A stretch of 14,947 bases of DNA. Origin: Bacillota bacterium. GTDB taxonomy: Bacteria; Bacillota_C; Negativicutes; JAEYSJ01. The first letter of the stretch is position 1, and each line of letters opens with the position of its first letter. The stretch spans positions 1-14,947 of the forward strand of contig JAEYSJ010000158.1 in assembly GCA_023434855.1 (NCBI GenBank), given 5' to 3'. Shown piece by piece: positions 1 to 12,045 of the stretch. The notes under the pieces are model-generated. The model saw only the letters and a program-made list of their open reading frames with translations. It did not search any database and was not told where the DNA came from. Both the position numbers and the translations under genes were made by a program.

Positions 1-630
1 CCTTTTCAAGAAGATAGCGATAAAAGAGCCACCTATTACAATAAAAATACCGCTAAAGGCAATGTTGACAGCTTCTGTCCGAATGAGCTCTAAAAAGAGC
101 GCATTATACTCTTCGATTCTAGGTTGCTCGCTGTAAATTCCTTCCACGTCATTGCTAGCTGATTTCAATCTGATTGCCACCAGATTGTAGCTTGCCGGCT
201 TCAAATATTTATCTGGTATAGGATAAATCCGTATTTTTTGTAAATCAGCCGGCTTATCTATCTCGCTTTGCCCAAGACTATAGCCATTGATAAAATTCTC
301 ATCTGCCGAAGCAAGGCTTCCCAGCCGAAGCCCCAGATTATATTGCGACAGATCGGCGGGAATAAACACCCAGGTTCTATACCAGATAAACTCTTCTTCA
401 TTCGACAACTTGCCTTTTACATTGTTCGGCACCTGTACTGGCTGCCAGAATGAATCATCATAGTCTGGATTTTTAAACTCTGAACTATCACCTCGTAGCA
501 TCAGCCATGGTCCAGTCAAAGAAATTTGCGCATTTTCTGCCGCCTCCATCTTTGACGATAAAAACGTCCATACAATAATAAGGAGTACTCCTAGCACTAT
601 GATTTTTCTTGGCCATTTGCTGTATCTCAT
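1..630 (-). CDS. Membrane sensor protein, N-terminal part (7TMR-DISM-like; probable histidine kinase), runs off the window
   Basis: The minus-strand frame is open from the ATG at 630 to the window edge (210 residues visible), with an AGAGGT-type ribosome binding site about 7 nt upstream. Residues about 9-24 form a membrane helix or signal anchor (IIVLGVLLIIVWTFL). Residues about 38-185 read like an extracellular jelly-roll, galactose-binding-like domain (GPWLMLRGDSSEF, YDDSFWQPVQVP, FIWYRTWVFIPADL). Residues about 190-208 begin a second membrane segment (NIAFSGIFIVIGGSFIAIF). In known proteins this order precedes a seven-helix 7TMR-DISM membrane domain and then a histidine kinase or diguanylate cyclase output. 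The divergent OmpR-type regulator next door favours a kinase, but the output domain lies outside the window. The domain call is from pattern recognition only. Confidence 0.7.
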   Translation of the reverse strand, partial: MRYSKWPRKIIVLGVLLIIVWTFLSSKMEAAENAQISLTGPWLMLRGDSSEFKNPDYDDSFWQPVQVPNNVKGKLSNEEEFIWYRTWVFIPADLSQYNLGLRLGSLASADENFINGYSLGQSEIDKPADLQKIRIYPIPDKYLKPASYNLVAIRLKSASNDVEGIYSEQPRIEEYNALFLELIRTEAVNIAFSGIFIVIGGSFIAIFLKR

Positions 631-708
631 AGTTTTACCTCTAAATGTAAATATATAAAACAGATTATTTCTTGAAAAAAGCCTCATTTTCCTGCGTATT
701 TAGGTAAT

Positions 709-742
709 TTTAAACAAAGTTTAAACTTTATGACAATATGAT
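709..742. promoter_or_regulatory. Tandem TTTAAAC half-sites in the sensor/regulator divergent region
   Basis: TTTAAAC occurs at 709-715 and again at 720-726, exactly 11 bp apart. The second copy lies in a perfect 14-bp palindrome, AAAGTTTAAACTTT (716-729). A TATGAT -10-like hexamer follows at 737-742. OmpR-family regulators commonly bind direct half-sites about one helical turn apart, so this is a good candidate for an autoregulatory site of the response regulator at 868 that could also control the divergent sensor gene. No convincing -35 hexamer was seen. Confidence 0.45.
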
Positions 743-867
743 GAGGATTTTATGATAAAAAGCCTATAAACACAGTCATTGCGCCACATTTTATGTTATT
801 TGGCCTAAAACTCCCTAAGCAGGAATCTTTTAGGGCAGATAGAATCATAAGTTCGAGGTGTATTGAC

Positions 868-1563
868 ATGACACAACAGAAAATCATGATTATTGAAGAC
901 GACAATGATATCAGTGAAATTATAGCCGTTTATTTACGTAAAAACGGTTATGATTGCTACCAAGTTTTTGATGGCAATGAGGTGCTCAGCACGGCGCATG
1001 AGCATATCCCCGATCTATTCATCTTGGATGTGCAGTTACCAGGATGCAATGGGATAAATATCTGTCAATCACTGCGCCACGAAACGGATAGTCCTATTCT
1101 ATTTCTTAGCTGTCTCGGTGAAGAACTTGATAAAATTCGTGGTCTAGATGCTGGTGGCGACGACTATATTACAAAACCTTTTAGTTTACCAGAACTTTTG
1201 GCGAGGGTCAAAGCTGCCCTCCGGCGCAGCGGGCTTCCTGTTATACCTTCCACAAGAAAGCAAGTACTTACATTTCCTGGACTTACCATCGACCTTACGC
1301 AATCTATGGCCTTTCTAGACGGAGAAGCACTCGTCCTTCCTTACTTGGAATTTCAAGTTCTGGCACGTCTAGCCCGCAATCCTGGCTGGACGTTTACCAG
1401 CGAACAATTATTTTCATTGATTTGGGGTGAGGAAAGTATCGACACCCGCACTGTCGCTGTCCACATCAACCGCCTGCGCAAAAAGCTCGAAAACAATATC
1501 GGCAAAAAAGAATATATCCTCACCGTGTGGGGGAAAGGATATAAATTTAATAATCAGTTATAA
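868..1563 (+). CDS. OmpR/PhoB-family two-component response regulator
   Basis: A 231-residue cytoplasmic DNA-binding regulator. The receiver domain covers residues 5-120: acidic pair D11-D12, phospho-acceptor D54 in LILDVQLPG context, conserved switch S81, and K103 in the YITKPF motif. A winged-helix output domain follows (about 131-231), ending in the recognition helix and wing RTVAVHINRLRKKLE...ILTVWGKGYKF. An upstream in-frame ATG at 793 would add 25 residues, but the ATG at 868 is preceded by GAGGTG at 855-860 and begins the receiver fold directly, so I chose it. Its likely partner is the divergently encoded membrane sensor at 1-630. A stem-loop terminator follows. The regulated genes cannot be deduced beyond likely autoregulation. 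Confidence 0.93.
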   Translation: MTQQKIMIIEDDNDISEIIAVYLRKNGYDCYQVFDGNEVLSTAHEHIPDLFILDVQLPGCNGINICQSLRHETDSPILFLSCLGEELDKIRGLDAGGDDYITKPFSLPELLARVKAALRRSGLPVIPSTRKQVLTFPGLTIDLTQSMAFLDGEALVLPYLEFQVLARLARNPGWTFTSEQLFSLIWGEESIDTRTVAVHINRLRKKLENNIGKKEYILTVWGKGYKFNNQL

Positions 1564-1609
1564 TTTAATTATTCGAGATTTTCGATAGTTTAACCAAACC
1601 AATTAGCGA

Positions 1610-1646
1610 AAGGAGTTCTCAGTGTTAGAACGCTGGGAACTCTTTA
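1610..1646 (+). terminator. Rho-independent terminator after the response regulator
   Basis: Arms 1613-1624 and 1631-1642 pair over 12 bp, including two G-U pairs, around a 6-nt TTAGAA loop. The pairing extends by A-T pairs outward, and the sequence TCTTTATT follows. It lies 50 nt after the regulator stop codon. The U tract is modest, so termination may be partial. Confidence 0.7.
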
Positions 1647-1670
1647 TTCATTATATATATATATCGTAAT

Positions 1671-1772
1671 AATTTCGTCTAAAATATAATAAATATAAAC
1701 AATAGACGAGATTTCATTGCTCAAAAGATGCATTTCGGCTATAATATAATAAAGTTTACTTTTAGACGATGA
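1671..1772 (+). promoter_or_regulatory. Duplicated promoter/operator unit (two copies, exact 60-bp period)
   Basis: Two related units of about 40 bp lie at 1671-1712 and 1731-1772. Each has a left arm (TCGTCTA at 1675, TCGGCTA at 1735), a TATAAT hexamer (1685-1690 and 1745-1750) and a right arm TAGACGA (1703-1709 and 1763-1769). The arms are inverted repeats of each other flanking the -10 box, which looks like an operator overlapping a promoter. The second unit ends next to the ribosome binding site GAGGTG (1771-1776) of the ATPase gene. I infer two tandem regulated promoters; the regulator is not identifiable. Confidence 0.55.
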
Positions 1773-1781
1773 GGTGAATTC

Positions 1782-3011
1782 ATGAATTATATACATAGAG
1801 CAATGGAAGCTACCTTTCTCCGTCTTAACAAGGAATTTCCAGCGTTGCTGCTCACCGGTCCAAGGCAGGTTGGCAAGACCACCATGCTTCAAAAACTGGC
1901 TGCGGAGGAGAACATAGGGCGGGGGTATGTGACACTGGACGATTTGACGGAGCGGCAAATGGCAAAGAACGACCCAAAGATGTTCCTGCAAATCCACAAG
2001 CCGCCAGTGTTTATTGATGAGGTACAGTATGCACCGGAGCTGTTTACCTATATTAAAATACACGTTGACCAGAACCAACGGGCCGGTGACTTTTGGTTGA
2101 CTGGTTCGCAGGTATTCAAAATGATGGAGGGAATACAGGAGTCGCTTGCCGGGCGTATCTGCCTGTTGCATATGGCTCCCATGTCACAGGCGGAAATCTA
2201 TGGTGCTGCCACTACACCTTTTGTGCTGGATTTGGAGCAGTTGTCACAGCGAATAAAGGAGCGCACTCCGATTGATACTTCTGCACTTTATGAGCGTATT
2301 TTTAGAGGCGGTATGCCTGCCCTCATCAGCGGGCAGTATAGCGACCATCGAGCAGCTTATTCCAGCTACATCAGCACCTATATAGACCGGGATGTAAAAG
2401 AGCTTTCCGGTTCTATAGATTCGCTCATGTTTATGGATTTTATCACGGCCGCCGCAGCCTTATGCGGACAGATGCTCAACTACAAGACCATTGCTGACAC
2501 TGCCGGTATTGACCAGATTACCGCCAAAAATTGGCTGGGAATTTTAGAGAGACTGGGCATCGTGTTTTATCTCCACCCGTATTCTAATAATATGCTTAAA
2601 CGCATGGTAACCAAGCCAAAGCTCTATTTCTATGACTGTGGGTTGGTGGCCTACCTGACCAGATGGAGTAATAGTGATACCCTGATGAACGGCGCCATGA
2701 GTGGTGCGATTCTGGAGAATTTCGTGGTAACTGAGATTGTTAAGAGTTATCAAAATTGCGGCTGGGAACCCTATATTTATTACTATCGGGATAAGGATAC
2801 TAAGGAGATTGATATTCTACTAGAGGACAGCGGCAAGCTATACCCTATGGAAATCAAGAAAACTGCCACGCCGCAAAAGCAGCTCACTCGTGTGTTTGGC
2901 GTGATTGACAAGGCTACTTTAGAGCGCGGCACAGGAGCTGTGCTTTGTACGACTGATCGATTGTCGGCGTTTGACAGCCAAAATTTGATTGTACCTATTT
3001 GGGGGATATAA
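1782..3011 (+). CDS. ATP-binding protein, AAA_14 ATPase with C-terminal DUF4143
   Basis: A 409-residue soluble protein. Walker A is GPRQVGKTT (residues 26-34), Walker B is VFIDE (76-80), a sensor-like LTGSQ lies at 106-110, and an arginine-finger-like SLAGR ends at 125. The C-terminal half has the DUF4143 pattern: YIDRDV, a winged-helix-like stretch near 240-265 (YKTIADTAGIDQITAKNWLGILERLGIV), LYFYDCGLVAYL, and a nuclease-like end with EIDILLE followed by YPMEIKK, the D...ExK spacing of PD-(D/E)xK folds. This is the usual full length for a common bacterial and archaeal family whose function is unsettled. The ATG at 1782 has GAGGTG 5 nt upstream. It stands alone with its own duplicated promoter and its own terminator, and looks more GC-rich than its surroundings. 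It is probably a mobile accessory gene. Confidence 0.9.
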   Translation: MNYIHRAMEATFLRLNKEFPALLLTGPRQVGKTTMLQKLAAEENIGRGYVTLDDLTERQMAKNDPKMFLQIHKPPVFIDEVQYAPELFTYIKIHVDQNQRAGDFWLTGSQVFKMMEGIQESLAGRICLLHMAPMSQAEIYGAATTPFVLDLEQLSQRIKERTPIDTSALYERIFRGGMPALISGQYSDHRAAYSSYISTYIDRDVKELSGSIDSLMFMDFITAAAALCGQMLNYKTIADTAGIDQITAKNWLGILERLGIVFYLHPYSNNMLKRMVTKPKLYFYDCGLVAYLTRWSNSDTLMNGAMSGAILENFVVTEIVKSYQNCGWEPYIYYYRDKDTKEIDILLEDSGKLYPMEIKKTATPQKQLTRVFGVIDKATLERGTGAVLCTTDRLSAFDSQNLIVPIWGI

Positions 3012-3016
3012 CTTTA

Positions 3017-3058
3017 AATGCCTTTGGTCGTTACTTCGGTAATGACTAAAGGCATTTT
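3017..3058 (+). terminator. Strong rho-independent terminator with TTCG tetraloop
   Basis: Arms 3017-3034 and 3039-3056 pair over 18 bp with only G-U exceptions, closed by a TTCG loop (3035-3038). The stem starts 6 nt after the ATPase stop codon. The flanking A/T bases let it work in both directions. Confidence 0.85.
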
Positions 3059-3099
3059 AGGTTGTTCTGATAACTTGTATGATAGTCTTCATCAAAAAA

Positions 3100-3434
3100 T
3101 TAATTTGCCAGCCAACGTTCAAAGAATTCCAGCTCAAATGCGAGGCATTAGGCGATATTTCTCCGCTAATGTATGAACTTCTCCCTCAACCGCCTGCTGT
3201 TCTTTTGCATTGCATTGCAACGCCAATATTGTCACTCTCCAAGCCGCTCTTTGTCCGCTTCTATTAATTTGAATACTAGTCCAGGTAAGCCTTTTTTCAT
3301 CCTCCCCCCTTGATGCTTTGTTAAACCTTTTGCTTGCATTAAATCAAGCAGGAGAGAACTGATACTGTCCAAGTAAAAAAAGTTTTTTCTGATTGCTCTT
3401 TCTATTTCAACGACGTGAGCAACAATGTTCCTAC
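3100..3434 (-). pseudogene. Possible decayed minus-strand reading frame, unidentified
   Basis: This gene-poor stretch lies between the ATPase terminator and the coiled-coil gene. On the minus strand, from about 3434 down to a TGA at 3232-3234, one frame reads like protein (IERAIRKNFFYLDSISSLLL, then DLMQAKGLTKH, then KKGLPGLVFKLIEADKERLGE). A second frame near 3100-3150 ends CLAFELEFFERWLAN-stop. No ATG with a good ribosome binding site starts either piece. The upper part overlaps the 3' end of the coiled-coil gene in another frame. It may be a gene broken by frameshifts, or chance. I do not recognise the family. I see no clear terminator for the minus-strand operon here. Confidence 0.25.
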
Positions 3435-4379
3435 AGCAAGCAAAGCACCTATCCCTCCCACCATATAAGAAACCATTAATTTTTGAGAAATAGTCGTATG
3501 GGACAGTGACATATCTCTCTTTAGTGCAACAATGGTCTTGTTGTGTTCTTCTTCTTGTTTTGATAAATACGAAAGTAGCTCCTTATGATTTTTGTAATTT
3601 TCTGTTAACGCGCGAAGTTCCTCATTGTGCTTTTGATAACTTTCTACTTGTGCTTTAATTTCTTCAGCAAGCTGCCTATCCACTTCTGCTTGTAGTTTTA
3701 GTTCTGTATCGTGGCGATTGACAACTTCAGCTTGTGCTTTAATTTTCTCATTAAGTTTCTTATCCTCTATTATTTGTGTTTGAATTTCCTTATCGTGCCG
3801 AATAATTGTCTCATTCTGTTCTTTAAGTAGATCATCTTGTCTGACGTTCTCATCGTGAACGAGCTTGATTTTCTGATCTAGTTCTTCTTGCTTTTGAAGC
3901 AAATCTTCTTGGGCTTTAAGTTGCCTGATAACATTTAGGATTTCTTGCTTTGCAAGATCTGAGAGTTCTTCAGCAGATGCACCTTCCAGCTTTAATTTCA
4001 ATTCCCTTACAACACTTCTATTGAGTGCTAGATTGGTTACTCCTAAGCCAAACAAGTATTTTGTTATTTGAGCAAGTTGTGTTTGAAATTCAAACGCAAT
4101 CTTCTGTGCCTCTGCTCCAGAAACAACAGCTTCCGCAAGGACAGATTGGGATGATTGAATTGCTTCGATAGCGGCTTTCTTTTGAAACAAGCCAGCTGAT
4201 TTACCGGCAGCCAAGTCGGCGGATGATTTAGCTGCTTCCGCTTGTTCAGTAGCGACCTTAACTTTTTTGTCAAGGTCATTTAGCAAAATCACTTGCTCGG
4301 AAATAATGTCGGGCAGTTCCGCCCTATGAAATTGAGACGCTAATTCATTTGTGTTTAAGACTACCCTGTTTTGCTCCAT
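3402..4379 (-). CDS. Coiled-coil protein with C-terminal membrane anchor, unknown function
   Basis: A 325-residue protein. Residues 1-130 are mostly alpha-helical (Ala/Lys/Glu/Gln-rich, then KYLFGLGVTNLALNRSVVREL). Residues about 140-295 form a long charged coiled coil with three 28-residue (four-heptad) repeats starting RHDKEI (194), RHDTEL (222) and KHNEEL (250). Residues about 303-322 (VSYMVGGIGALLAVGTLLL) form one membrane helix with a short cationic tail, as in tail-anchored proteins. The ATG is 6 nt after the stop of the upstream 518-residue gene, and its ribosome binding site (GGGGGTAA) overlaps that stop codon, so the pair is probably translationally coupled and works together. From memory, similar uncharacterised proteins occur in gut Bacillota. 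The role is unknown; a membrane-tethered scaffold or sensor is an inference. Confidence 0.82.
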   Translation of the reverse strand: MEQNRVVLNTNELASQFHRAELPDIISEQVILLNDLDKKVKVATEQAEAAKSSADLAAGKSAGLFQKKAAIEAIQSSQSVLAEAVVSGAEAQKIAFEFQTQLAQITKYLFGLGVTNLALNRSVVRELKLKLEGASAEELSDLAKQEILNVIRQLKAQEDLLQKQEELDQKIKLVHDENVRQDDLLKEQNETIIRHDKEIQTQIIEDKKLNEKIKAQAEVVNRHDTELKLQAEVDRQLAEEIKAQVESYQKHNEELRALTENYKNHKELLSYLSKQEEEHNKTIVALKRDMSLSHTTISQKLMVSYMVGGIGALLAVGTLLLTSLK

Positions 4380-4385
4380 GACACT

Positions 4386-5942
4386 TTACCCCCATGTAAG
4401 AGCTTCCTTCATTTTTTCGTTCAGCCTTGGATTTGTCTTTTGGATACCACCGATATGTTCGCCAACTCTTTCCATGTCGGTATCGATTTCCCCAAACGAT
4501 TTAATCAAAATCAACGTTGTGCGTTCCATCATTTCTAATGCTTCACTAATTGTTCGAGCAGTCGTTTCTGCAGCAATCCAAGTATTCGCCTGTAAATAGT
4601 AGACTTTTGCATTCATAAGATGCAGTTGTTCACTAAAAACGGCTATCCTTTCGTTTCTGAGATTACTTCGCTTTATGCTCATTACTGTATCATAACCGAC
4701 CGCTATAGCAAAACGACCAACACCGATAAAGTTGACACGCATTATGAACTCCTTGGCAAAAAGAGCACTGTTACCTCCTGATTTCACAGCACCTCGTATC
4801 GCTGCATCAGTCATATCTACAAGCGTAAATGTACCTGTTGCAATAGTCAGCATACGCGTAATTGTACGGTTATTTGCTGGTTTTACTTTATGCCAATCTA
4901 TTCGCTTCAAATCGTTTATCTGCTTAATATCTTTTTCCTTTATTTCTGACGCAAGCCTACGAATGAAGTAAAAGCCCCGCACTATACATTCATTTAGTAT
5001 GACAGGCAGTGCCTGACGCCCAAGCTCGTGCATAACACCGATTTCAGCCCGCAAGTCGAACCGTTGCACCGTTTCTTTAATAATTTTACCATTCTCATCA
5101 TGTTCCGCAAGCAAAGTTCCATTAAACAACTTTGAAATCCACAAGGAAAACTCCTTGACTCCGTCTTTGTTTAGCGAATTGAAAAACGGCAAGGAAGATA
5201 GTTCCTTCAATAGAGAAAGAATCGGGCCGGGTAAACCTGTTCCGGCGCCAGGATTTATGCTTGTTCCCGCCATATCGCTTACCATATGAAACACCCAATA
5301 TATTGTGCCGTATAAGAACTTTTGTTGGATATCCTCGCCTATAAAAGCCTCATTTTTTATATCCTCAATCTGAAAAAAACCATTTTTATCAGTGCCATAT
5401 GCTTTACTTGTAAATTGCGTAAGCATTGAAAATCCAAGACCGATAGGTGTGGGATGATGAGCAAAATCGCGCAGATGATGTTGCAATCCACCACCAAATT
5501 TATCTGTGACACTATCACTCGGAGCAGGGAACTTATCTTCAAGATACTTAATGGCATCTTGAAGGTCATCGCCTTCATACCCTTTGCTTGTGGCTATATG
5601 TTTAACAAAATTGTTTGCCTTTTCACTACTCCATTCCTTACCACGTTCTAAACTAAATTGTCCCACCCAAAAAGAATCAACCAATCCAGCCAATAGACCG
5701 CTTCCAACAGCGACCATATAGTCAATACCATCGGCATGATTGGTCAAACGATCGATATCATTGTTGAGTGCATCAATTTTGTCTTGATTATTCTGCAATC
5801 TTTTATCAACGGTTCTTAATCCATTGATTATCAATTGCTCGCGCGGATCAGTTACATCATACATCGGAGAGATATCATACTGTAACTCAAGATCATCAGT
5901 AACGACTTTATATTCCAGCAAAGATTTCATTTGTGTGGTCAT
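4386..5942 (-). CDS. Membrane protein with HHxxDFxHHP and HxxxD signatures, unknown function
   Basis: A 518-residue protein, first gene of a two-gene operon. Residues 35-70 look coiled-coil. Hydrophobic segments lie near 75-93 (MVAVGSGLLAGLVDSFWVG), 166-178, 207-222 and 400-420. It has a dense polar motif GGLQHHLRDFAHHPTPIGLG (H155, H156, D159, H162, H163) and a second motif WVFHMVSDMAGT (H219, D223) beginning a hydrophobic helix, followed by GTGLPGP. The spacing and setting resemble the His/Asp signature of YdjM/DUF457 membrane-bound metal hydrolases, so I infer a distant metal-dependent hydrolase or relative; this is not established. The annotated ATG follows AGGAAGG by only 1 nt. The ATG at codon 5 would be spaced 13 nt away, so the exact start is uncertain. 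A WYL regulator lies upstream on the same strand. I recall the family as uncharacterised. Confidence 0.85.
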   Translation of the reverse strand: MTTQMKSLLEYKVVTDDLELQYDISPMYDVTDPREQLIINGLRTVDKRLQNNQDKIDALNNDIDRLTNHADGIDYMVAVGSGLLAGLVDSFWVGQFSLERGKEWSSEKANNFVKHIATSKGYEGDDLQDAIKYLEDKFPAPSDSVTDKFGGGLQHHLRDFAHHPTPIGLGFSMLTQFTSKAYGTDKNGFFQIEDIKNEAFIGEDIQQKFLYGTIYWVFHMVSDMAGTSINPGAGTGLPGPILSLLKELSSLPFFNSLNKDGVKEFSLWISKLFNGTLLAEHDENGKIIKETVQRFDLRAEIGVMHELGRQALPVILNECIVRGFYFIRRLASEIKEKDIKQINDLKRIDWHKVKPANNRTITRMLTIATGTFTLVDMTDAAIRGAVKSGGNSALFAKEFIMRVNFIGVGRFAIAVGYDTVMSIKRSNLRNERIAVFSEQLHLMNAKVYYLQANTWIAAETTARTISEALEMMERTTLILIKSFGEIDTDMERVGEHIGGIQKTNPRLNEKMKEALTWG

Positions 5943-5951
5943 CCCTTCCTA

Positions 5952-5980
5952 TGGGACACTGGGGAAGGTTCATCGTCCCA
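5952..5980. repeat. REP-like imperfect palindrome upstream of the 518-residue gene
   Basis: TGGGAC (5952-5957) and GTCCCA (5975-5980) are exact inverted arms around a 17-nt GGGGAAGG-containing core, inside the leader of the minus-strand operon. It resembles the dispersed GGGAC...GTCCC palindromes I recall from Bacillota genomes. It could alternatively be an operator. Only one copy is in the window, so its repeat nature is untested. Confidence 0.3.
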
Positions 5981-6082
5981 AATAAATCGTATCCTTGTTT
6001 TTTTCTTTGCTCTCGCCAGTGGATGCGCTGTCATGCTATGCGAGGTTACAAAGTTACTTAATCGTTTATTTTCCATTCGTGG

Positions 6083-7000
6083 CTACAGCACCTCAACTTT
6101 CTCTCCTTGCCCTTTTAGCCACATATCAATGCCGTTTCCATACACTTCAGCGGAAACAGTATAACATCCATCTTTCTTAGACAAAATCTCTGCCGTAGGC
6201 AGCCTGTCTAACACCGCCTCAATAGATGGCCCGCTGTAGTCAAACTTTACTCTCTGCAATTCCCCCGAATACATAAACTGCACTCTCTTGCGAAACTCCC
6301 CATCATTGAATTTATCCCTATAGGGAATATGAAATCGGACTCCCGTCCCTTGAAAACTGCCAATTCTGTCAATACGAAATACAGTGGGAAAGTCTTTGCT
6401 CTCATCAGCTATATAAGCAATAAGATAAAAATAATATTCGGAAAACATAATGGCGACCGGCTTCACTTCGTGCTCTCGCTCCGCACCATCCTGACGGCTG
6501 TAGGCAGTCCGAATCACTTCCTGTTTAGTGATGTACTGCGAAAGCTCCCAGATGGCGGTGAGCAGTTTCTTGCCATGCCGCAAAGGAACATAATAAAATT
6601 TTTCATTTCGAATCACTGCATCTACCAGCTCGCGGTCATTGGGGGTTACCTGCGCCAATAGTTTTCTAACAAGCCTGTCCAATTCTTCCTTACAGAAAGC
6701 ACGGCTCTCCAGAAGGATTTTACACGTTGCCAAAACCTCTTCATTGGTCAGCCATTCCCGTTCCATGCGGACAAGATAGTACCCCAAACGGCTTCTGTCG
6801 TATGCAATAGCTACTTCGCCTTCATCATAATGGGTGCAGGCCAGATATTCTCTCAAATCTTCAATGTCGCGCTGGATGGTTTTTTCGGTTACGCCATATT
6901 GTGCAGCAAGCTCTGCTTTCTTTATAAGTTCACTTTTATTCAGCCTCTCGTACATGCTTAGCAGGCGAAACCCCTTATTTCCTTTAAAATCAATGTGCAA
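6083..7000 (-). CDS. WYL-domain transcriptional regulator (DeoR-type HTH, WYL, WCX)
   Basis: An N-terminal helix-turn-helix (FRLLSMYERLNKSELIKKAE...YGVTEKTIQRDIEDLREYL) is followed by a linker, a WYL ligand-binding domain (EHEVKPVAIMFSEYYFYLIAYIADESKDFPTVFRIDRIGS) and a WCX-like C-terminus (residues about 225-305). The frame is open to an ATG at 7051, but that ATG and the one at 7030 lack a ribosome binding site, and the latter overlaps a TATAAT box (7029-7034 on this strand). The TTG at 7000 has GGAGGG 5 nt upstream, so I chose it (305 residues). WYL regulators of this layout (BrxR/CapW type) often control phage-defence genes and sense nucleic acids or nucleotides. The next genes downstream on the same strand are the uncharacterised membrane/coiled-coil pair, a plausible target. 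Confidence 0.88.
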   Translation of the reverse strand: MHIDFKGNKGFRLLSMYERLNKSELIKKAELAAQYGVTEKTIQRDIEDLREYLACTHYDEGEVAIAYDRSRLGYYLVRMEREWLTNEEVLATCKILLESRAFCKEELDRLVRKLLAQVTPNDRELVDAVIRNEKFYYVPLRHGKKLLTAIWELSQYITKQEVIRTAYSRQDGAEREHEVKPVAIMFSEYYFYLIAYIADESKDFPTVFRIDRIGSFQGTGVRFHIPYRDKFNDGEFRKRVQFMYSGELQRVKFDYSGPSIEAVLDRLPTAEILSKKDGCYTVSAEVYGNGIDMWLKGQGEKVEVL

Positions 7001-7331
7001 ATTGACCCTCCGTTCGGCTGTTTTCTCCATTATACAAAACCACATGGACATATATTGGGCTTATGATATTTTTTTATTTTATTGGCAATCTTTCAGAACC
7101 AGTATATATCTAAATAAACAGATAAATGGCTAAAAATCATGCATATTATCTATTCTCCCAATTTAATCTATATTCCTGTAAATTTCGCCATTTTTTTCTA
7201 TTTTTAAATATAGAATATACACAGATGTGACTAAAATAGGTGTCAAGAGAAAGGTAGACCGTTTGAAAACTGGAATACAGACAACCAGCCATTGAATAAA
7301 CTTTATCAGCCACCGAAAGGAGGGGGTGAAT

Positions 7332-7499
7332 TTGAAAGTAATCGTCCACCCTCCTCGAAGCCCGGAGGGATTACGCAATTTGCAAAAAAAGGTTGCGACG
7401 GTTCATGCCGAAGCGGTTTTGAAGTACATAGCAAAGCTCCCTTGCTCTAAAGAACAGAAAATACAATTGGTTTCCAGTATCCAAAATTCTTTCAAGTAA
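7332..7499 (+). CDS. Small basic protein, 55 residues, unidentified
   Basis: The TTG start is preceded by a near-perfect ribosome binding site, AAAGGAGGGGGTG (6 nt spacing). The product begins MKVIVHPPRSPEGLRNLQKK, continues as a helical stretch (VATVHAEAVLKYIAKLPCSKEQKIQLVSSIQNSFK), and stops at 7497-7499 where a terminator begins. There is no signal peptide or membrane segment. It looks translated and complete. From memory, short proteins of this style accompany serine-recombinase or conjugative-element modules in Clostridia, which would fit an accessory region, but no recombinase follows here. The region 7001-7331 upstream holds only AT-rich divergent promoter DNA with the WYL gene's TATAAT. 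Confidence 0.6.
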   Translation: MKVIVHPPRSPEGLRNLQKKVATVHAEAVLKYIAKLPCSKEQKIQLVSSIQNSFK

Positions 7500-7545
7500 A
7501 ATAAGTAAGCGAAGCAATCAGAAGACTGCTTGGCTTACTTATTTT
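7498..7545. terminator. Bidirectional-type terminator after the 55-residue ORF
   Basis: AAAATAAGTAAGC (7498-7510) pairs perfectly with GCTTACTTATTTT (7533-7545), and the stem continues inward AAGCA/TGCTT across one G-G mismatch. The A-rich left arm and T-rich right arm give U tracts in both directions. The left arm overlaps the stop codon of the small ORF. Confidence 0.75.
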
Positions 7546-7619
7546 ATATTGTATGAATACGTTTTTAGAAAAACTTGTTGTAAATCTTCGCAGTGATTAA
7601 AGAATATCCATAAACTAAC

Positions 7620-7665
7620 AATTGAAATGAAAGGCCCCCCTAGCAGGATGGCTCTCATTTCAATT
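7620..7665. repeat. Inverted repeat in the 500-bp gap before the Fic gene
   Basis: ATTGAAATGA (7621-7630) and TCATTTCAAT (7655-7664) pair, with A7620-T7665 extending the stem to 11 bp around a 24-nt loop containing a run of C. TTTTT follows on the plus side, so it may be a weak terminator. The rest of 7546-7960 shows no supportable gene. A minus-strand frame at 7539-7859 lacks a ribosome binding site and overlaps both hairpins. Confidence 0.4.
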
Positions 7666-7960
7666 TTTAAAGCTCTATTGTAAAGTTGAATAACAACCAT
7701 CCTTTGCCTTCTTCTAAACATGATTTTACACAGTCGTCTATACTGGCTTTTCCGTTCAATATTGTTGCACACTTGTGTGCTTAGTAGTAAGACAACTTCC
7801 TTCGCCTGGATTTTCATGGTATAATTCTTATCAGAATTAGCGTACGTGACCCTTGGCAAAAAATCAGTGTAACATGCTTTGATACGTTGTCGCCATAGTT
7901 CATGGAATCTCCTACCCTATATCAACTATATTTCCTGCGGATATGGTAAACACTATCTCA

Positions 7961-7999
7961 GAAAGGAGTGTCGAGTTATCTGCTCGACGGAATTTTATG
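7961..7999 (+). promoter_or_regulatory. Hairpin-spaced ribosome binding site of the Fic gene
   Basis: The only good Shine-Dalgarno, GAAAGGAG (7961-7968), lies 28 nt from the ATG at 7997, too far for normal use. Between them is a perfect 6-bp hairpin, GTCGAG (7970-7975) and CTCGAC (7983-7988) with a 7-nt loop. Folding it leaves 9 unpaired nt, an ideal spacing. The start therefore probably depends on this fold; this is inference from spacing. Confidence 0.45.
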
Positions 8000-8764
8000 A
8001 CCAAGCAAGAATTATTTAATAAGGCAGATGAGTATAAAAAAATTATACAAGCGGCACGTCCATTAAAGCCGGAAGAAATAAAGGAATTAGATGCCTATTT
8101 CAAAATTGGCTTAACCTATAGCAGTAATGCCTTAGAAGGAAATACCCTTACGATTTCGGAAACGAAAGTGCTGTTGGAGGATGGGCTGACAGCTGGTGGT
8201 AAACCTCTGAAAGACAGTTTGGAAGCAATAGGTCATGCAAAAGCATATGATTTTATGCTTCAGATGGTCAGAGAAAAACCTTTTGAAATTACAGAGCATA
8301 TTATTTTAGAATTGCATCGCCTGTTTTACGAAGGGATTGACAAACAAAACACCGGAAAATATCGTGATATTTCCGTCTATATTACGGGAACCGATTATCT
8401 ACCGCCGGAGCCAGAACAAGTTCCGCGGCTGATGAAGGAATATGTACATAAAGTAAATCAATTATCAGGAAAAACGCATCCTATTGAACTGGCTGCGCTT
8501 GCTCATAAATGGCTGGTTGATATCCATCCATATGTTGATGGTAATGGTAGAACAGCGCGTCTGCTGATGAATCTACTTTTGATGCATTATGGATATGGAA
8601 TTGTATCTATTCCGCCTGTATTGAGGATGGAATACATTGAGGCGCTTCGTGTATCACAATGTGCTAACCAACCGGATGCGGAACCATTTATCAAGTTGAT
8701 TGCAGAATGTACCATAGAAACCCAAAAAGATTATTGTAGGCTTTTACGCATAAAAACGAATTAA
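7997..8764 (+). CDS. Fic-domain protein (class II, predicted protein AMP-transferase)
   Basis: A 255-residue cytoplasmic protein predicted to transfer AMP (or another nucleotide) from a nucleotide donor to target hydroxyls. The catalytic loop HPYVDGNGRTAR (H177 to R188) matches HxFx(D/E)GNGRxxR with Tyr for Phe. The autoinhibitory motif [S/T]xxxE[G/N] is present N-terminally as SNALEG (S43, E47, G48), which places it in class II with a built-in inhibitory helix and so no separate antitoxin needed. The flap region (GKYRDISVYITGTDYLPPEPEQVP) precedes the Fic core. An upstream in-frame ATG at 7943 has no ribosome binding site, so I chose 7997 (see the hairpin-spaced site). The target protein cannot be deduced. 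The gene stands alone, and its complete motifs suggest it is active. Confidence 0.92.
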   Translation: MTKQELFNKADEYKKIIQAARPLKPEEIKELDAYFKIGLTYSSNALEGNTLTISETKVLLEDGLTAGGKPLKDSLEAIGHAKAYDFMLQMVREKPFEITEHIILELHRLFYEGIDKQNTGKYRDISVYITGTDYLPPEPEQVPRLMKEYVHKVNQLSGKTHPIELAALAHKWLVDIHPYVDGNGRTARLLMNLLLMHYGYGIVSIPPVLRMEYIEALRVSQCANQPDAEPFIKLIAECTIETQKDYCRLLRIKTN

Positions 8765-8817
8765 AAAGCAACCGATACAAAATAACTTTCGCTTGCTATT
8801 TCAAGCTTTCTACTCAT

Positions 8818-8862
8818 AATCTAACCATTCTAACCAGTTAAGTTGGTTAGAATGGTTAGATT
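8818..8862. repeat. Perfect 19-bp inverted repeat, 7-nt loop
   Basis: AATCTAACCATTCTAACCA (8818-8836) is exactly complementary to 8844-8862 around GTTAAGT. Each arm contains the half-repeat CTAACCA twice, as CTAACCATTCTAACCA. There is no U tract after it, so it is not a classical terminator. Its right end overlaps the -35 region of the promoter that follows, which suits an operator, though it might end the Fic transcript by another route. Confidence 0.6.
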
Positions 8863-8888
8863 GCTTCATGGTTCAATTCATATATAAT
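8861..8888 (+). promoter_or_regulatory. Candidate SigA promoter for the structured leader
   Basis: TTGCTT (8861-8866), a 16-nt spacer and TATAAT (8883-8888); a second TATAAT lies at 8889-8894. Transcription would begin at the first hairpin of the structured block. The -35 matches only its TTG, so strength is uncertain. Confidence 0.4.
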
Positions 8889-8895
8889 TATAATG

Positions 8896-9051
8896 TAGCC
8901 ACTCCCCCAAATGGCTATAGGCGCAGCGGGTTAATTACTTCTTGATCGAGTAGGAGACTCCCAGTAACTGAGTCGTCGCCGGGTAGAAAGGGGCACCCAA
9001 TCGGTGCGGGAACCCCTACAGACCCCACTCCAAGTCAACCGGTGAATACCC
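8896..9051 (+). ncRNA. GC-rich structured leader or candidate non-coding RNA, unidentified
   Basis: About 155 nt, clearly GC-richer than both flanks, with several compatible helices: TAGCCA/TGGCTA (8896-8901, 8911-8916), GACTC/GAGTC (8955-8959 with 8969-8973), and a nested set of GGGTA/TACCC (8981-8985, 9047-9051), AGGG/CCCT (8989-8992, 9014-9017) and GCACC/GGTGC (8993-8997, 9003-9007). It sits between a promoter-like site and the membrane-protein gene starting at 9142. It does not match any riboswitch class whose consensus I can recall. It could be a cis-regulatory RNA, a stand-alone RNA, or the non-coding end of a lost mobile element. Confidence 0.4.
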
Positions 9052-9141
9052 TAATAAAAAAGTACTATGCATGTATATAAAACAGCCCCGCAGGATAGCC
9101 TACGATATATTCAGCGATATCATAATCAGGAGGACTACACA

Positions 9142-9651
9142 TTGAGCAACCAAATGCTGCTATGGGCTATGCTAATTTTACCATTTTTGACCTTCTTTTT
9201 TATGGGGAAAAAATATATAAAGCGTTATATACCTGCTGGTTTGTTCGCTGTGCTTGTAAGCACAATAATAGGTGATGTAGGTGGTACTTTTCACTTTTGG
9301 GTTCGTCATGAAACCGCTTATCCACTTCATAATTTATCGCCGTGGAATATTTCTTTACATATGGTAGTGACAATGTGGGTATTAAAATTCACCTACCGGC
9401 GCTATTGGGTGTATCTAATTGTCAACGCAATTTTTGATCTAGTATATGCTTTCTTTTTTCTAAATACTTTTCTCCCAAACAAAGGCATATATAATTATGT
9501 AGCAATTACCAGTTTTCAGGTTTGGCTAATAAATCTTGTTACTGCAAACTTGATTTATCTTTTCCAAGTATGGCGAGAAGGTGGAAAATTACGGCTAGCA
9601 GCAGCAAAACCATTACCTAAAAATCAAGACAATGGGGAAGATAAGAAATAA
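9142..9651 (+). CDS. Five-helix membrane protein, unknown function
   Basis: The frame is open from an ATG at 9067, but that ATG has no ribosome binding site. The TTG at 9142 has AGGAGG at 9128-9133 (8 nt spacing) and starts directly at the first membrane helix, so I chose it (169 residues). Hydrophobic segments lie at about 6-20, 31-46, 66-83, 88-110 and 119-142. Between helices are GDVGGTFHFWVRHETAY and HFTYRR-like basic turns (KFTYRRYWVY), and the C-terminal tail is hydrophilic and Lys-rich. Similar small integral membrane proteins are widespread in Bacillus and relatives without an assigned role. The leader of 8896-9141 is long and structured, so expression may be controlled at the RNA level. 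Confidence 0.75.
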   Translation: MSNQMLLWAMLILPFLTFFFMGKKYIKRYIPAGLFAVLVSTIIGDVGGTFHFWVRHETAYPLHNLSPWNISLHMVVTMWVLKFTYRRYWVYLIVNAIFDLVYAFFFLNTFLPNKGIYNYVAITSFQVWLINLVTANLIYLFQVWREGGKLRLAAAKPLPKNQDNGEDKK

Positions 9652-9729
9652 AAGGCGCCCGTTAACTTATTGAAGTATCCTGTATTTTCCGAACGTTTAG
9701 CCCATTATTGGGAAATCAATCAGGTGTGT

Positions 9730-9776
9730 AAACCTCCATTGTCAGGTAAACTGGAACTTGACTATGGAGGTTTTTA
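9730..9776 (+). terminator. Rho-independent terminator
   Basis: AAACCTCCAT (9730-9739) pairs with ATGGAGGTTT (9764-9773). The stem continues GTCA/TGAC (9741-9744, 9759-9762) past one T-T mismatch, with a T run at 9771-9775. It sits 80-120 nt after the membrane-protein gene. The A tract on the left lets it also serve the convergent XRE gene. Confidence 0.75.
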
Positions 9777-9816
9777 AATATGTATGACTATGGGTGAAGT
9801 AGTAGGACCGTGTTTC

Positions 9817-10416
9817 TCATGTATTACCAAACAACTTTACCCAGGTACTTTTTAAAATTTGAATATTATCATTTTCCCATTGGTTAACCGTGCGTGCGTG
9901 AAACCCATATAGCTTGCCAAATTCTTTTTGCGTCAGCCCCAGGCTTTGACGTAACATCCGTATTTGTCGGCCTTGGCCATCGTATAAAAAACGATTATAC
10001 CGATCAAGCAGGTCTGTAATTTCAACGCCAAAAAGCTCAGCAATTTTACTTAGCTTATCAAAAGGGTAAGGGATTTTTCTGTCTTCCTGTTCATAACCGC
10101 AATAAGTAGCGAGATGAATGCCAGTTTTTTCAGCCACATCTCTTTGCCTTAGCGCTTTTTTATGTCTGTAATAGCGCAGCTTGTCCGCTACTGTGGCAAT
10201 TTCAGACGGGCCGGTATATTTAATATTAAACCTTTCCGCTTCAAGCAATTTGCGTGGTTGCAATAACTGGAAACGGTGAATATATAATGGGGCATACTTG
10301 ACGCCGCCGAGACAATGGCAGGTCACTATATACATATGTTTACCAAGGCGTATAAATGGGTACCATTTATCATGAAAAAGAATCCGGTTAGTACAATTCA
10401 GATCACTTTTAGCCAC
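9817..10416 (-). CDS. XRE-family regulator with two HTH domains
   Basis: A 199-residue protein. After about 70 residues of unassigned N-terminal sequence (FHDKWYPFIRLGKHMYIVTCH...) there are two Cro/C1-type helix-turn-helix domains: residues about 79-138 (LRYYRHKKALRQRDVAEKTGIHLATYCGYEQ...ITDLLDRYN) and about 149-186 (GRQIRMLRQSLGLTQKEFGKLYGFHARTVNQWE). The start used is GTG at 10416, which shares its G with the TAG stop of the truncated sigK (TAGTG). There is no Shine-Dalgarno, so translation would depend on coupling to sigK or on another start such as the ATG at 10335. If the sigK break is a mobile-element junction, this is the first gene inside that element, a usual place for a phage or element repressor. 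Confidence 0.8.
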   Translation of the reverse strand: MAKSDLNCTNRILFHDKWYPFIRLGKHMYIVTCHCLGGVKYAPLYIHRFQLLQPRKLLEAERFNIKYTGPSEIATVADKLRYYRHKKALRQRDVAEKTGIHLATYCGYEQEDRKIPYPFDKLSKIAELFGVEITDLLDRYNRFLYDGQGRQIRMLRQSLGLTQKEFGKLYGFHARTVNQWENDNIQILKSTWVKLFGNT

Positions 10417-10766
10417 TATGTTAGTATAGCATTTTCAATACATCTTGCTGCATATGTAGCTAAACGTATCTTTTTTGCGATATCAAAAGTATTAATTGCC
10501 TTTATCAATCCAATAGTCCCAATGGATATCAAGTCATCAATGTCCTCGCCTGTATTGTCAAATTTTTTGACGATATGTGCCACTAGTCGCAGATTTCTTT
10601 CAATTAATACGTTTTTGGCCTTTTCATCTCCATTTTTAAGTCTGTCGAGATATATCTGTTCTTCTTTTTCGGAAAGCGGTAAAGGAAAAGTATTATTAGT
10701 AACATAAGCGACAAGAAAAGCTATACCCTCAATAACGGCGGTTGCCAGAGCCGCAAAAAAAGACAC
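10416..10766 (-). CDS. sigK: SigK, N-terminal half only (interrupted mother-cell sigma factor)
   Basis: The product (116 residues) starts [24 protein letters not shown], the SigK pro-sequence region with a hydrophobic stretch, then [43 protein letters not shown] (sigma region 2) and [12 protein letters not shown] (region 2.4), and ends AILT-stop. Full SigK is about 230-240 residues; regions 3 and 4 are absent, and no continuation was found in the nearby frames. The break falls at the residues where the B. subtilis skin element divides sigK (around CIEN). I chose GTG at 10766, with GGGGGTGAT 6 nt upstream, over TTG at 10787. Region 2 remains open. It may be a live gene rejoined by excision during sporulation, or a relic; the E-to-A change in CIEN(E/A)IL sits at the junction. 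Confidence 0.85.
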
Positions 10767-10798
10767 TAGCCAATCACCCCCTGACAATTCTGTGTTTC

Positions 10799-10825
10799 AT
10801 TGTATGGGGAAATAAGGCATATTGT
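10799..10825 (-). promoter_or_regulatory. SigE-like promoter upstream of sigK
   Basis: On the minus strand CATACAAT (10806-10799) matches the SigE -10 consensus CATACANT, and ACAATAT (10825-10819) resembles the -35 at a 12-nt spacing. In B. subtilis sigK is transcribed by SigE holoenzyme, so function and position agree. A GGCA/TGCC inverted repeat overlaps the -35 (10816-10828). Confidence 0.5.
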
Positions 10826-10911
10826 GCCTGTCATAAATTAAAATAAATATGGTTTTTCATGGAAATGCACTGGCTTTTACATTATAATTATCTATAGGAA
10901 GGTGATACATA

Positions 10912-11004
10912 ATGGACCAATACTTGGGCGACATGGGAATTCTGATTTCTATTGGACTTATTATTCTATATATGACATGGGACAAACTTTTTCCAGACGA
11001 ATAG
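10912..11004 (+). CDS. 30-residue single-pass membrane microprotein
   Basis: ATG at 10912 with a strong ribosome binding site, AGGAAGGTGAT, about 5 nt upstream, and a TATAAT box at 10883-10888. The product MDQYLGDMGILISIGLIILY is followed by MTWDKLFPDE: an acidic short N-terminus, one membrane helix (about residues 8-21) and an acidic tail. It is divergent from sigK and ends where a dispersed repeat begins. Such tiny membrane proteins are often missed by gene finders. I do not recognise it. Confidence 0.55.
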   Translation: MDQYLGDMGILISIGLIILYMTWDKLFPDE

Positions 11005-11162
11005 AGTCTTTTTCAAAACGTCCATCTACGTTGTTGCTCCTACGCGTTTTCGCTCAACGTACTTCCTTGTACGCCTTCGCTCAAACGCTAGTCGCGAGCC
11101 GTACAATCTGTATCGGGAAACGTTCAAGTCAGAACGTTGCATCTGAACTTTTTTAAACAGCC
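11003..11162. repeat. About 160-bp structured repeat, MITE/REP-like
   Basis: This fills the gap between the microprotein and yyaC. The ends are imperfect inverted repeats (GAGTCTTTTTCAAAACGTCC at the left; GTTCAGATGC and AAAAAAGTTC on the reverse of the right end). The centre folds as GCGTT/AACGC (11044-11048, 11084-11088) enclosing CGTAC/GTACG (11058-11062, 11069-11073), with a matching TTCGCTCAA on each side. It has no coding potential. It resembles a dispersed intergenic element I recall from Sporomusa/Pelosinus-type genomes; copy number cannot be tested here. Confidence 0.5.
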
Positions 11163-11212
11163 TCTTTTTATTAATGTTGCGTGTTTTTTATCACCCATTT
11201 ATAATCAACAAG

Positions 11213-11797
11213 TCAACCCATCGCTATTATACTGTCTTTTTCATTTGAAATTGCATTTATTACATTCTCAAGTGCGCCGCCAATTATTTTACTGAGTTTC
11301 ATAACAATTGACAGCGGTGTGCTTTGTAAATCTAAATAACCAATTTGTCCTCCGGCATTTACTACACCAATAATGGAGATGTGTCCTACACTAGGCAAAT
11401 TATTGCCGACTGCAATACCGGCTTGCAGGCCGCCTTCCCATATCTCGATATTGCCAATTTCATTAGATTTGCCTAAGCAGGCATCAATGGCGATAATAAT
11501 TGGATGGTGATATTGATGGTTAATGATAGCTATTGTTTCAACTAAATTACCGGCATGAACCGGGCATTCCAAACTTCCGAATACAATACAGTCAACATGT
11601 TCTCTTAAATGCGAACCAATTAACGGCCCAAGGGCGTCACCGGTATAGCGGTCCGAACCAATACATAATATTACTAGGGGCCTTATACTAAATCCTTCTT
11701 GTTTATGCAGCAAACATAATGCATGCTCGTACAATTTGTCACGAGCAGCAGTGTCATTCCGATTTGTTGTTAGTTTACTGATAGGATTTTTTTTCAT
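11213..11797 (-). CDS. yyaC: YyaC-family spore protease homologue
   Basis: A 194-residue protein closely following the B. subtilis YyaC pattern: VILCIGSDRYTGDALGPLIGSHL (residues about 42-64), a VFGSLECPVHAGNL segment, IDACLG (104-109), LPSVGHISIIGVVNAGG (about 134-150) and a terminal helix. The fold is related to germination protease GPR and hydrogenase-maturation peptidases, with conserved D49, D54 and D105 as candidate catalytic or metal residues. In B. subtilis it belongs to sporulation-expressed genes and its substrate is not firmly established. The ATG at 11797 has GGAGAGGGG upstream. It is transcribed toward the dispersed repeat. This is strong independent evidence of a spore former. 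Confidence 0.88.
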   Translation of the reverse strand: MKKNPISKLTTNRNDTAARDKLYEHALCLLHKQEGFSIRPLVILCIGSDRYTGDALGPLIGSHLREHVDCIVFGSLECPVHAGNLVETIAIINHQYHHPIIIAIDACLGKSNEIGNIEIWEGGLQAGIAVGNNLPSVGHISIIGVVNAGGQIGYLDLQSTPLSIVMKLSKIIGGALENVINAISNEKDSIIAMG

Positions 11798-11870
11798 TAT
11801 CCCCTCTCCTCATCAAACAGCCTTTAGTAATCTGTATGCATTATACCGATAATTATTGCAATAAATTTTT

Positions 11871-11906
11871 AAACCTCTTCGCTCATCTAGATGCGAAGAG
11901 GTTTTT
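11871..11906. terminator. Rho-independent terminator between the HD-domain gene and yyaC
   Basis: AAACCTCTTCGC (11871-11882) pairs perfectly with GCGAAGAGGTTT (11893-11904) around a 10-nt loop. There is a T run on the plus side (11902-11906) and A/T-rich sequence on the other. The only plausible user is the minus-strand HD-domain gene, whose transcript would also include the structured repeat next door. Confidence 0.7.
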
Positions 11907-11914
11907 CTTACAGT

Positions 11915-12045
11915 ATCAGAAAGTATAACTTTCCGGATTTTTCTAAAGTATTTCGCTTTACCCTGTGGAGCCGGAAAGTAACTTACTTTCTTTCTGCTTT
12001 AAAACCTTACGGTTTTCCCCGATTCTTCACTGTTCGAAACGGAAC
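11915..12045. repeat. Multi-hairpin intergenic element downstream of the HD-domain gene
   Basis: No gene is present. At least four short hairpins follow one another: GAAAGT/ACTTTC at 11919-11933, AAAG/CTTT at 11945-11959, a second GAAAGT/ACTTTC at 11974-11990, and AAAACC/GGTTTT at 12001-12016, with GTTC/GAAC near 12028-12041. TTCCGG and CCGG motifs recur beside the GAAAGT hairpins. It lies in the 3' untranslated region of the minus-strand HD-domain gene and looks like a dispersed structured element rather than unique sequence. Confidence 0.45.

What the first reader, a model, noticed from the sequence alone, without database searches (positions are those of the whole stretch)
10416..10766. 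sigK stops at the residues where the skin element splits it in B. subtilis
Sequence shows: SigK region 2 is preserved up to [12 protein letters not shown], then AILT and a TAG, with regions 3-4 missing. Known: in B. subtilis (and near there in C. difficile) a prophage-like element interrupts sigK around this point and is excised in the mother cell. Inference: 10415 and below is one arm of a sigK-intervening element, or its remnant, so excision could gate late sporulation in this lineage. Region 2 is not riddled with stops and a SigE-like promoter is kept, which argues against an old pseudogene.
Basis: partly seen in the sequence, partly recalled or inferred. Interest (0 to 1): 0.75.

Follow-up and report, generated by a model that had tools for sequence, protein, structure and literature searches.

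The report
Defence-island element splitting sigK
The window holds one end of a mobile DNA island that cuts a late spore-formation gene in two, and its relatives suggest that when the island pops out it mends that gene and at the same time changes the form of its own cutting enzyme.

Summary
In detail: sigK ends after region 2 (RCIEN, then AILT and TAG), in a clean frame. Relatives support the reading as one arm of a sigK-intervening (skin-like) element. The window itself shows one end only: no genome is held for it, and it holds neither a recombinase match nor the C-half. Five relatives with the same left end (Sporomusa ovata and four others) have the sigK C-side directly behind a large serine recombinase, 25-38 kb away where both ends lie on one contig, and no intact sigK was found in them. 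Three have or appear to have sigK in three parts, with a second element at DKEGNE. Cargo includes anti-phage defence (BREX; Gabija). The same element family sits at the same sigK site in 18 Clostridia-class genomes. The most novel point is predicted, not shown: in the excised circle the recombinase frame runs straight into the tandem-XRE ORF beside sigK-N (window 9817-10431). This held in 20 of 21 scored elements, and one element keeps the frame through matching shifts on both arms. Integration would thus trim the recombinase and excision extend it. Against: no deposited fusion protein found, no codon-position signal in the linker. My searches listed no description of this.

The parts
10432..10766 (-). 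sigK 5' part (region 2), GTG start at 10766; a TTG upstream gives an ORF to 10787
   Evidence: TIGR02846 E=1.7e-54, model positions 3-114 of 227; reading frame
10430..10434 (-). AAATG, the core shared between left and right junctions of the relatives; element DNA begins at about 10431
   Evidence: junctions of relatives; coordinates
10416..10430 (-). element-derived tail of the truncated sigK frame (..AILT and TAG)
9817..10431 (-). tandem-XRE (HTH) ORF, open from the junction itself ([12 protein letters not shown]...); predicted to become the C-terminal domain of the recombinase in the excised circle; annotatable alone from GTG 10416
   Evidence: HTH_3/HTH_19; frame analysis; model mean pLDDT 87.1
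10799..10823 (-). SigE-like promoter (AATATG...CATACAAT)
10773..10781 (-). ribosome-binding site GGGGGTGAT before the GTG start
   Evidence: sequence
7943..8764 (+). Fic-domain protein, cargo; DNA around it 91% identical to the S. ovata element
   Evidence: Pfam Fic 2.3e-23; blastn; PADLOC SoFic/PDC-S04
6083..7051 (-). WYL-domain regulator, cargo
   Evidence: PADLOC WYL
4386..5942 (-). BnzB-like protein (candidate defence gene), cargo
   Evidence: PADLOC BnzB 1.6e-46; no Pfam match
3402..4379 (-). protein next to the BnzB-like gene, no match in PADLOC or PHROGs
1782..3011 (+). AAA_14/DUF4143 ATPase (PDC-S01); DNA 2271-3054 is 88% identical to a stretch inside the S. ovata element, so the element probably reaches at least here

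Best explanation
Window 1-10431 is, at least down to about 2271, the left arm of a sigK-intervening element of the 'site 1' family (crossover in the AAT of CIEN|EILM). Shown in relatives: where both ends lie on one contig the element is 25.2 kb (S. ovata) or 38.1 kb (G043); it carries defence systems there and ends at its far side in a large serine recombinase read in the same direction as sigK, whose stop codon is usually the TGA that sigK supplies (AAATGA), and the sigK C-side follows at once. Inferred: SigE switches on sigK-N in the mother cell, the recombinase joins the sigK parts at the AAATG core, and full-length SigK is made there while the spore keeps the element. Predicted from sequence: in the excised circle the recombinase frame no longer meets that stop. 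It continues in frame through the junction into the tandem-XRE ORF, so the circle encodes a recombinase-XRE fusion and the integrated form a trimmed recombinase. The likeliest role, a guess, is direction control: the trimmed enzyme excises (with an unidentified helper), the fused enzyme integrates an incoming circle or is kept silent.
For: Same left junction and HTH in window, S. ovata, G002, G003, G023, G043, G057, G063. Right end with recombinase then NEILM..: S. ovata, G057, G063, G043, G002. Element lengths from both ends. No intact sigK found in these genomes. Defence cargo. Same family at the same site in 18 Clostridia-class genomes. Fusion frame: 20 of 21 scored in frame; the 21st (G1012) joins in frame to the N-terminal half of its XRE ORF and is shifted further in; 19 of 21 read through 150 aa or more. 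Stops in the 24 codons after 26 junctions: 1 of 624 in the scored HTH frame (that one is G433, scored in the wrong phase), against 32 and 62 in the other frames. G433: recombinase frame and HTH frame are both displaced and still match.
Against: The window has no C-half, no recombinase match and no genome. No excision data of any kind. G003's right flank is not sigK beyond a few codons. For the fusion: the first 31 codons show no third-position excess among 9 sequences (209, 229, 157 pairwise; codons 32-120: 309, 227, 838; the same in column counts); no 447-1421 aa protein with this domain was found (548 candidates, none at E<=1e-12); an ATG or GTG is present at codon 36 in all 9, and most left ends have some possible start near the junction (3 of 27 lacked one, two rows being in the wrong phase); S. 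ovata and G617 meet stops in the XRE part and G1012 a frameshift, so the domain is dispensable in some. The in-frame relation is one inherited trait, not 21 independent ones. No directionality factor was recognised.
Confidence: 0.85

Rival explanations
1. The XRE ORF is an ordinary separate regulator gene at the element's end; its frame match with the recombinase is inherited by chance and means nothing.
For: No codon-position signal in codons 1-31; start codons exist near the junction in most cases; no deposited fusion found.
Against: No true stop in the linker frame over 26 left ends while the other frames hold 32 and 62 (allowing for the G433 phase); length changes in the linker of G1068, G1036 and G707 leave the frame intact; G433 has matching displacements on the two arms; the model's first beta strand lies upstream of codon 36, so a start there would cut it off.
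Confidence: 0.27
2. The truncated sigK is a dead remnant or decayed duplicate, and the lineage no longer completes sporulation or uses another sigK.
For: The window alone cannot exclude it; S. ovata carries an additional sigK 3' end about 4.6 kb downstream and KB1 a decayed one; some XRE copies are broken.
Against: Frames of the sigK parts seen in carriers are free of stops, and no other sigK was found in G001, G002, G003, G023, G043, G057, G063, several of them drafts.
Confidence: 0.08
3. Assembly or strain-mixture artefact: the junction is a chimera.
For: The window is a short contig.
Against: The same junction is seen in 7 other genomes of the class, including a 1.38-Mb S. ovata contig and a 2.68-Mb contig of G043.
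Confidence: 0.02

Closest known systems
skin element of Bacillus subtilis (SpoIVCA, Skr)
   Different: B. subtilis spoIVCA lies behind the 5' part of sigK (PMC10747680 passages) and skin is a defective prophage (PMC6957869 passages); here the recombinase is at the 3' side, recognised cargo is largely defence, and a recombinase-XRE frame spans the junction
skinCd of Clostridioides difficile (CD1231, CD1234)
   Same: sigK split, excised in sporulation by a serine recombinase with a directionality factor (PMC5025042 passages)
   Different: Inserted at a different site and in opposite orientation to B. subtilis skin (same passages)
gin element in gerE of Bacillus cereus
   Same: Non-phage element in a late mother-cell gene (PMC5595907 passages)
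   Different: Three serine recombinases; other target gene
Archaeal 'suicidal' (SSV-type) integrases
   Same: Attachment site inside the integrase ORF; described as found exclusively in archaea (PMC8371274 passages)
   Different: Tyrosine recombinases, and integration breaks the enzyme; here a serine recombinase whose catalytic part stays whole when integrated
Integration-dependent repressor of mycobacteriophage BPs
   Same: attP inside a gene so that integration trims the protein's C-terminus and changes its behaviour (PMC4557955 abstract)
   Different: There the trimmed protein is the repressor, not the recombinase
sigK-integrated phage MMB025 of Alicyclobacillus and phiS63 of C. perfringens
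   Same: Insertion in sigK (PMC13141910 passages)
   Different: Phages; in 28 proteins of the window, S. ovata and G043 elements no virion, packaging or lysis family was matched in PHROGs, though not every ORF was tested

Membership tests
sigK-intervening (skin) elements | Interrupts the sigK coding sequence | tested here: met
sigK-intervening (skin) elements | sigK parts in one orientation with a short shared core | tested here: met
   Met in relatives S. ovata and G043 on one contig, and in the junctions of G057, G063, G002 on separate contigs; not visible in the window, which holds one end
sigK-intervening (skin) elements | Encodes a large serine recombinase at one end | tested here: met
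   Met in relatives (Resolvase + Recombinase + Zn ribbon); no match in the window
sigK-intervening (skin) elements | No other intact sigK, so excision is needed | tested here: inconclusive
   None found in 7 carrier genomes, several of them incomplete; window genome not held; Clostridia carriers not tested
sigK-intervening (skin) elements | Excision in the mother cell rebuilds sigK | not testable with these tools
   needs sporulating cells
sigK-intervening (skin) elements | Directionality factor | tested here: inconclusive
   No conserved small sense ORF by the recombinase start in 7 elements; the rest of the elements not searched
Self-splitting ('suicidal') integrases | attP lies inside the integrase ORF | tested here: inconclusive
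   Predicted in frame in 20 of 21 scored elements; no circle observed
Self-splitting ('suicidal') integrases | Tyrosine recombinase inactivated by integration | tested here: not met
   Serine recombinase domains, all upstream of the junction

The most novel reading that the evidence does not exclude
A bacterial large serine recombinase gene carries its own attachment site inside its reading frame. Insertion into sigK cuts off a tandem-XRE domain and usually borrows a stop codon from sigK. Excision during sporulation rebuilds two genes at once: sigK on the chromosome and a recombinase-XRE fusion on the circle. The enzyme's form thus records whether the element is in or out, and could set the direction of recombination. 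Carriers examined for cargo are defence islands, and the family is lodged in the same sporulation gene in two bacterial classes.
Probability: 0.6. Interest if true: 0.85.

Novelty: new variant of a known kind. Interest (0 to 1): 0.72.

Why it matters
It extends split sigK to the Negativicutes spore formers and to many Clostridia-class genomes as one recombinase family that keeps the same site. It shows sigK in three parts, which should need two separate recombinases. It places defence systems (BREX, Gabija) in an element that the mother cell would discard but the spore keep. If the fusion is real, it gives a natural, testable way in which a serine integrase changes form by its own recombination; the review whose passages I read reports self-disrupting integrases only for archaeal tyrosine enzymes.

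Tried and rejected
Own-genome search: no genome is held. An attP-like 18-mer in viral contigs gave one hit, L146, whose listed ORFs show neither recombinase nor XRE gene: taken as chance. The XRE protein in viral contigs (4 stretches, none confirmed), plasmids and phages (no match at 1e-10). A deposited natural recombinase-XRE fusion: none found. A small directionality-factor ORF at the recombinase start: only antisense echoes of the coding sequence. The idea that XRE ORFs lack a start codon was tested and largely fails (3 of 27; in that script G068 and G433 were scored in the wrong phase). P0055 (765 aa) looked like a fusion but its tail is not XRE by eye. Fold search of the XRE model: no match at E<=0.001; the top 50 are mostly XRE-type domains and phosphonate enzymes with such a domain. 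One search's script missed the right ends of G003, G855, G926 and G1068 and misjudged G760, G1064 and G433; one search rescored these except G003.

Full report
Observation. The minus-strand ORF 10416-10787 is the first half of SigK: TIGR02846 at 1.7e-54 over model positions 3-114 of 227, and Sigma70_r2 at 1.9e-15. The frame is clean, ends [12 protein letters not shown], and starts at a GTG at 10766 behind GGGGGTGAT; a SigE-type -10 sits upstream, and the same -10 is at about the same offset in 14 of 20 sequences scanned. No genome is held for the window, and its XRE protein's longest contig is 14,947 bases, so the window is probably a whole contig. Two recombinases of relatives find no match in it.

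Relatives. A scan of genome contigs with the fragment gave 80 kept loci (455 encoded a relative, the best 80 were kept). Of these 80, 62 have an intact sigK and 18 a split one; 14 of the 18 are among the closest 18 loci (L001-L018), which are Sporomusaceae or MAGs. Two split sites stand out. Site 1, CIEN|EILM, is that of the window. Site 2 is at DKEGNE. In the order of S. ovata, 28 genomes searched: 13 intact, 11 split at site 2, 2 at site 1, 1 broken near residue 127, 1 without a match (my sorting of the listed matches).

The element. The XRE ORF next to the window's sigK was found in 11 of 300 genomes of the class. Seven of them have it directly behind sigK-N, as in the window (G001 = S. ovata, G002, G003, G023, G043, G057, G063); G068 has it in another gene; G188, G038 and G044 gave partial or broken matches. 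Core to core, on one contig each, the element measures 25.2 kb in S. ovata and 38.1 kb in G043. The last gene before the C-side of sigK is a large serine recombinase (Resolvase, Recombinase, Zn-ribbon) in the direction of sigK; its stop codon TGA is part of the AAATGA that sigK contributes. The shared core is AAATG. No intact sigK was found in these seven genomes, several of which are drafts. G003 is a partial exception: after its recombinase the DNA follows sigK for a few codons only and then departs, and no C-half was found. For G023 no recombinase was found at the cut-off used.

Mobility. G068, whose only match to SigK at 1e-10 is a 35% one, carries the same element in a gene that resembles a gamma-glutamylcyclotransferase (PF06094 in its relative P0139). 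The junctions share AA there, which fits a two-base crossover in AA. G230 and G044 hold other or decayed insertions.

Three-part sigK. G057 has part 1 on contig C31, and on contig C5 the recombinase, part 2 ([31 protein letters not shown]), a second serine recombinase in the opposite direction, and part 3 37.9 kb further on. G063 shows three parts on three contigs; G002 shows parts 1 and 2, part 3 not found. Full SigK in these genomes should therefore need two excisions (inference).

Cargo. S. ovata: BrxC, PglX, PglZ and BrxA models at very low E-values, that is a BREX system. G043: GajA and GajB (Gabija) and a type IIG restriction-modification pair. Window arm: a BnzB-like protein (1.6e-46), a WYL regulator, a PDC-S01 ATPase and a Fic protein. 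Against PADLOC I tested 9 cargo proteins plus the recombinase (S. ovata), 10 (G043) and 6 plus the XRE ORF (window), not every ORF. Against PHROGs 28 proteins in all (8, 10, 10) gave no virion, packaging or lysis family; G043 has a RecE-like exonuclease and an FtsK-like protein, S. ovata a weak excisionase-like stretch (3.7e-06) at the start of a Fic protein, and the XRE ORF matches phage regulators. Window stretches 7783-8897, 7271-7594 and 2271-3054 are 88-92% identical in DNA to stretches inside the S. ovata element, so the window is element DNA at least down to about 2271.

Clostridia. The XRE ORF was found in 7 of 391 genomes of the class of Clostridium sp. KNHs214 (32-48% identity to the window's), 2 of 31 of one order (one seen before) and 12 of 394 of another order (33-52% to G535's, G605 93%; two seen before). 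A related recombinase was found in 7 of 7 and 10 of 12 of the genomes then searched (G978 and G188 negative). All 18 left ends from these searches lie behind sigK-N at site 1, as do the 8 of the Negativicutes: 26 left junctions. For the Clostridia I did not test for a second, intact sigK, nor the cargo.

The frame across the circle. Joining the right end (up to the core AA) with the left end (after the core) puts the recombinase codons, often ..GENSK or ..GEDSK, directly before the XRE ORF. Of 22 sigK elements with both ends, one search scored 21 by frames taken from tblastn matches: 20 are in frame; the 21st, G1012, is in frame with the N-terminal half of its XRE ORF and carries a shift further inside. 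The unscored one, G535, is in frame. In 19 of 21 the joint frame reads on for at least 150 residues; S. ovata (57) and G617 (52) meet stops. In 18 of 21 the integrated recombinase stops within 6 nt of the core. G003 and G068, whose far ends are not in a sigK C-half, are also in frame. In the first 24 codons after 26 junctions the script counts 1 stop in 624 codons in the XRE frame, against 32 and 62 in the other two; that single stop is G433, which the script read in the wrong phase. Linker length differs in G1068, G1036 and G707 without loss of frame. In G433 the recombinase frame leaves one base over at the core and the XRE frame is displaced by the matching amount, so that the circle still reads through for 202 residues. 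This is the strongest single hint, since the two arms touch only in the circle.

Against the fusion. Codons 1-31 show no excess of third-position change in 9 sequences, as expected for a loose linker or for untranslated DNA alike. A possible start codon exists near the junction in all but 3 of 27 left ends (two rows in wrong phase), among them an ATG or GTG inside sigK itself, from which some database proteins begin (MYRK..). An ATG/GTG at codon 36 is shared by the 9, but the model puts the domain's first strand before it (residues 18-23 of the GTG-start protein). A search for natural proteins of 447-1421 residues with this domain found none at E<=1e-12 among 548 candidates; a circle limited to mother cells would rarely be sequenced.

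Mechanism, step by step. Shown: split gene, paired ends, recombinase, core, cargo, frame relation. Inferred from established knowledge of skin elements (PMC5025042, PMC6957869, passages only): excision in the mother cell, SigE control, need of a helper factor. Guess: the trimmed recombinase is the form for excision and the fused one for integration or silence. The XRE repeats resemble SinR-type domains, so they may bind DNA near the recombinase promoter or the attachment site.

Literature. Nine searches of the PMC library for sigK with Sporomusa, Negativicutes, Lachnospiraceae, defence systems, and attachment sites inside integrase genes listed no paper that by title or shown abstract describes these elements; only the top rows were seen. 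I read passages of eight papers, the abstract and outline of a ninth, and no supplement. [quoted passage not shown] PMC4557955 (abstract) gives the nearest logic, in a phage repressor. PMC5737554 on integrases fused to directionality factors was seen only as a listing with the start of its abstract. Most subscription papers are not held, so earlier description elsewhere cannot be excluded.

Noticed in passing
L112:11905-12189 (S. ovata) and L116 around 7490-7860 (Sporomusa sp. KB1): A second copy of the sigK 3' end, starting about site 2, lies 4.6-5.2 kb downstream; it is 96.5% (S. ovata) and 96.8% (KB1) identical in DNA to that genome's own sigK end, with a frameshift in KB1, as if an element at site 2 had once been there.
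   Followed up: partly
L062 and L064 around 10369-11990; L074 10360-14373: Very small sigK site-1 elements (about 1.6 and 4 kb) in MAGs, one named Peptococcaceae bacterium 1109: a short (279-294 aa) serine recombinase by eye next to the sigK C-half, plus a gene that looks like a HAD-type sugar phosphatase (no family search run).
   Followed up: partly
L120 (S. acidovorans), L123, L124, L163: Compact site-2 sigK elements of 3.7-6.1 kb (from and 36 coordinates) with inverted-repeat ends (TTTATCTG / CAGATAA); in L163 the recombinase (Pfam) runs opposite to sigK.
   Followed up: partly
G044:C1:495344-531309 (L144, L159, L135, L160): Decayed member of the same element family with a frameshifted recombinase and a partial XRE ORF about 36 kb apart.
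   Followed up: no
   Followed up: no
L111:6973-7890 (S. ovata element): A Fic protein whose first 57 residues match a phage excisionase family weakly (3.7e-06): a possible lead for the missing directionality factor.
   Followed up: no
window 10902-11160 (+): Short ORF and a stretch between sigK and yyaC that was not examined.
   Followed up: no
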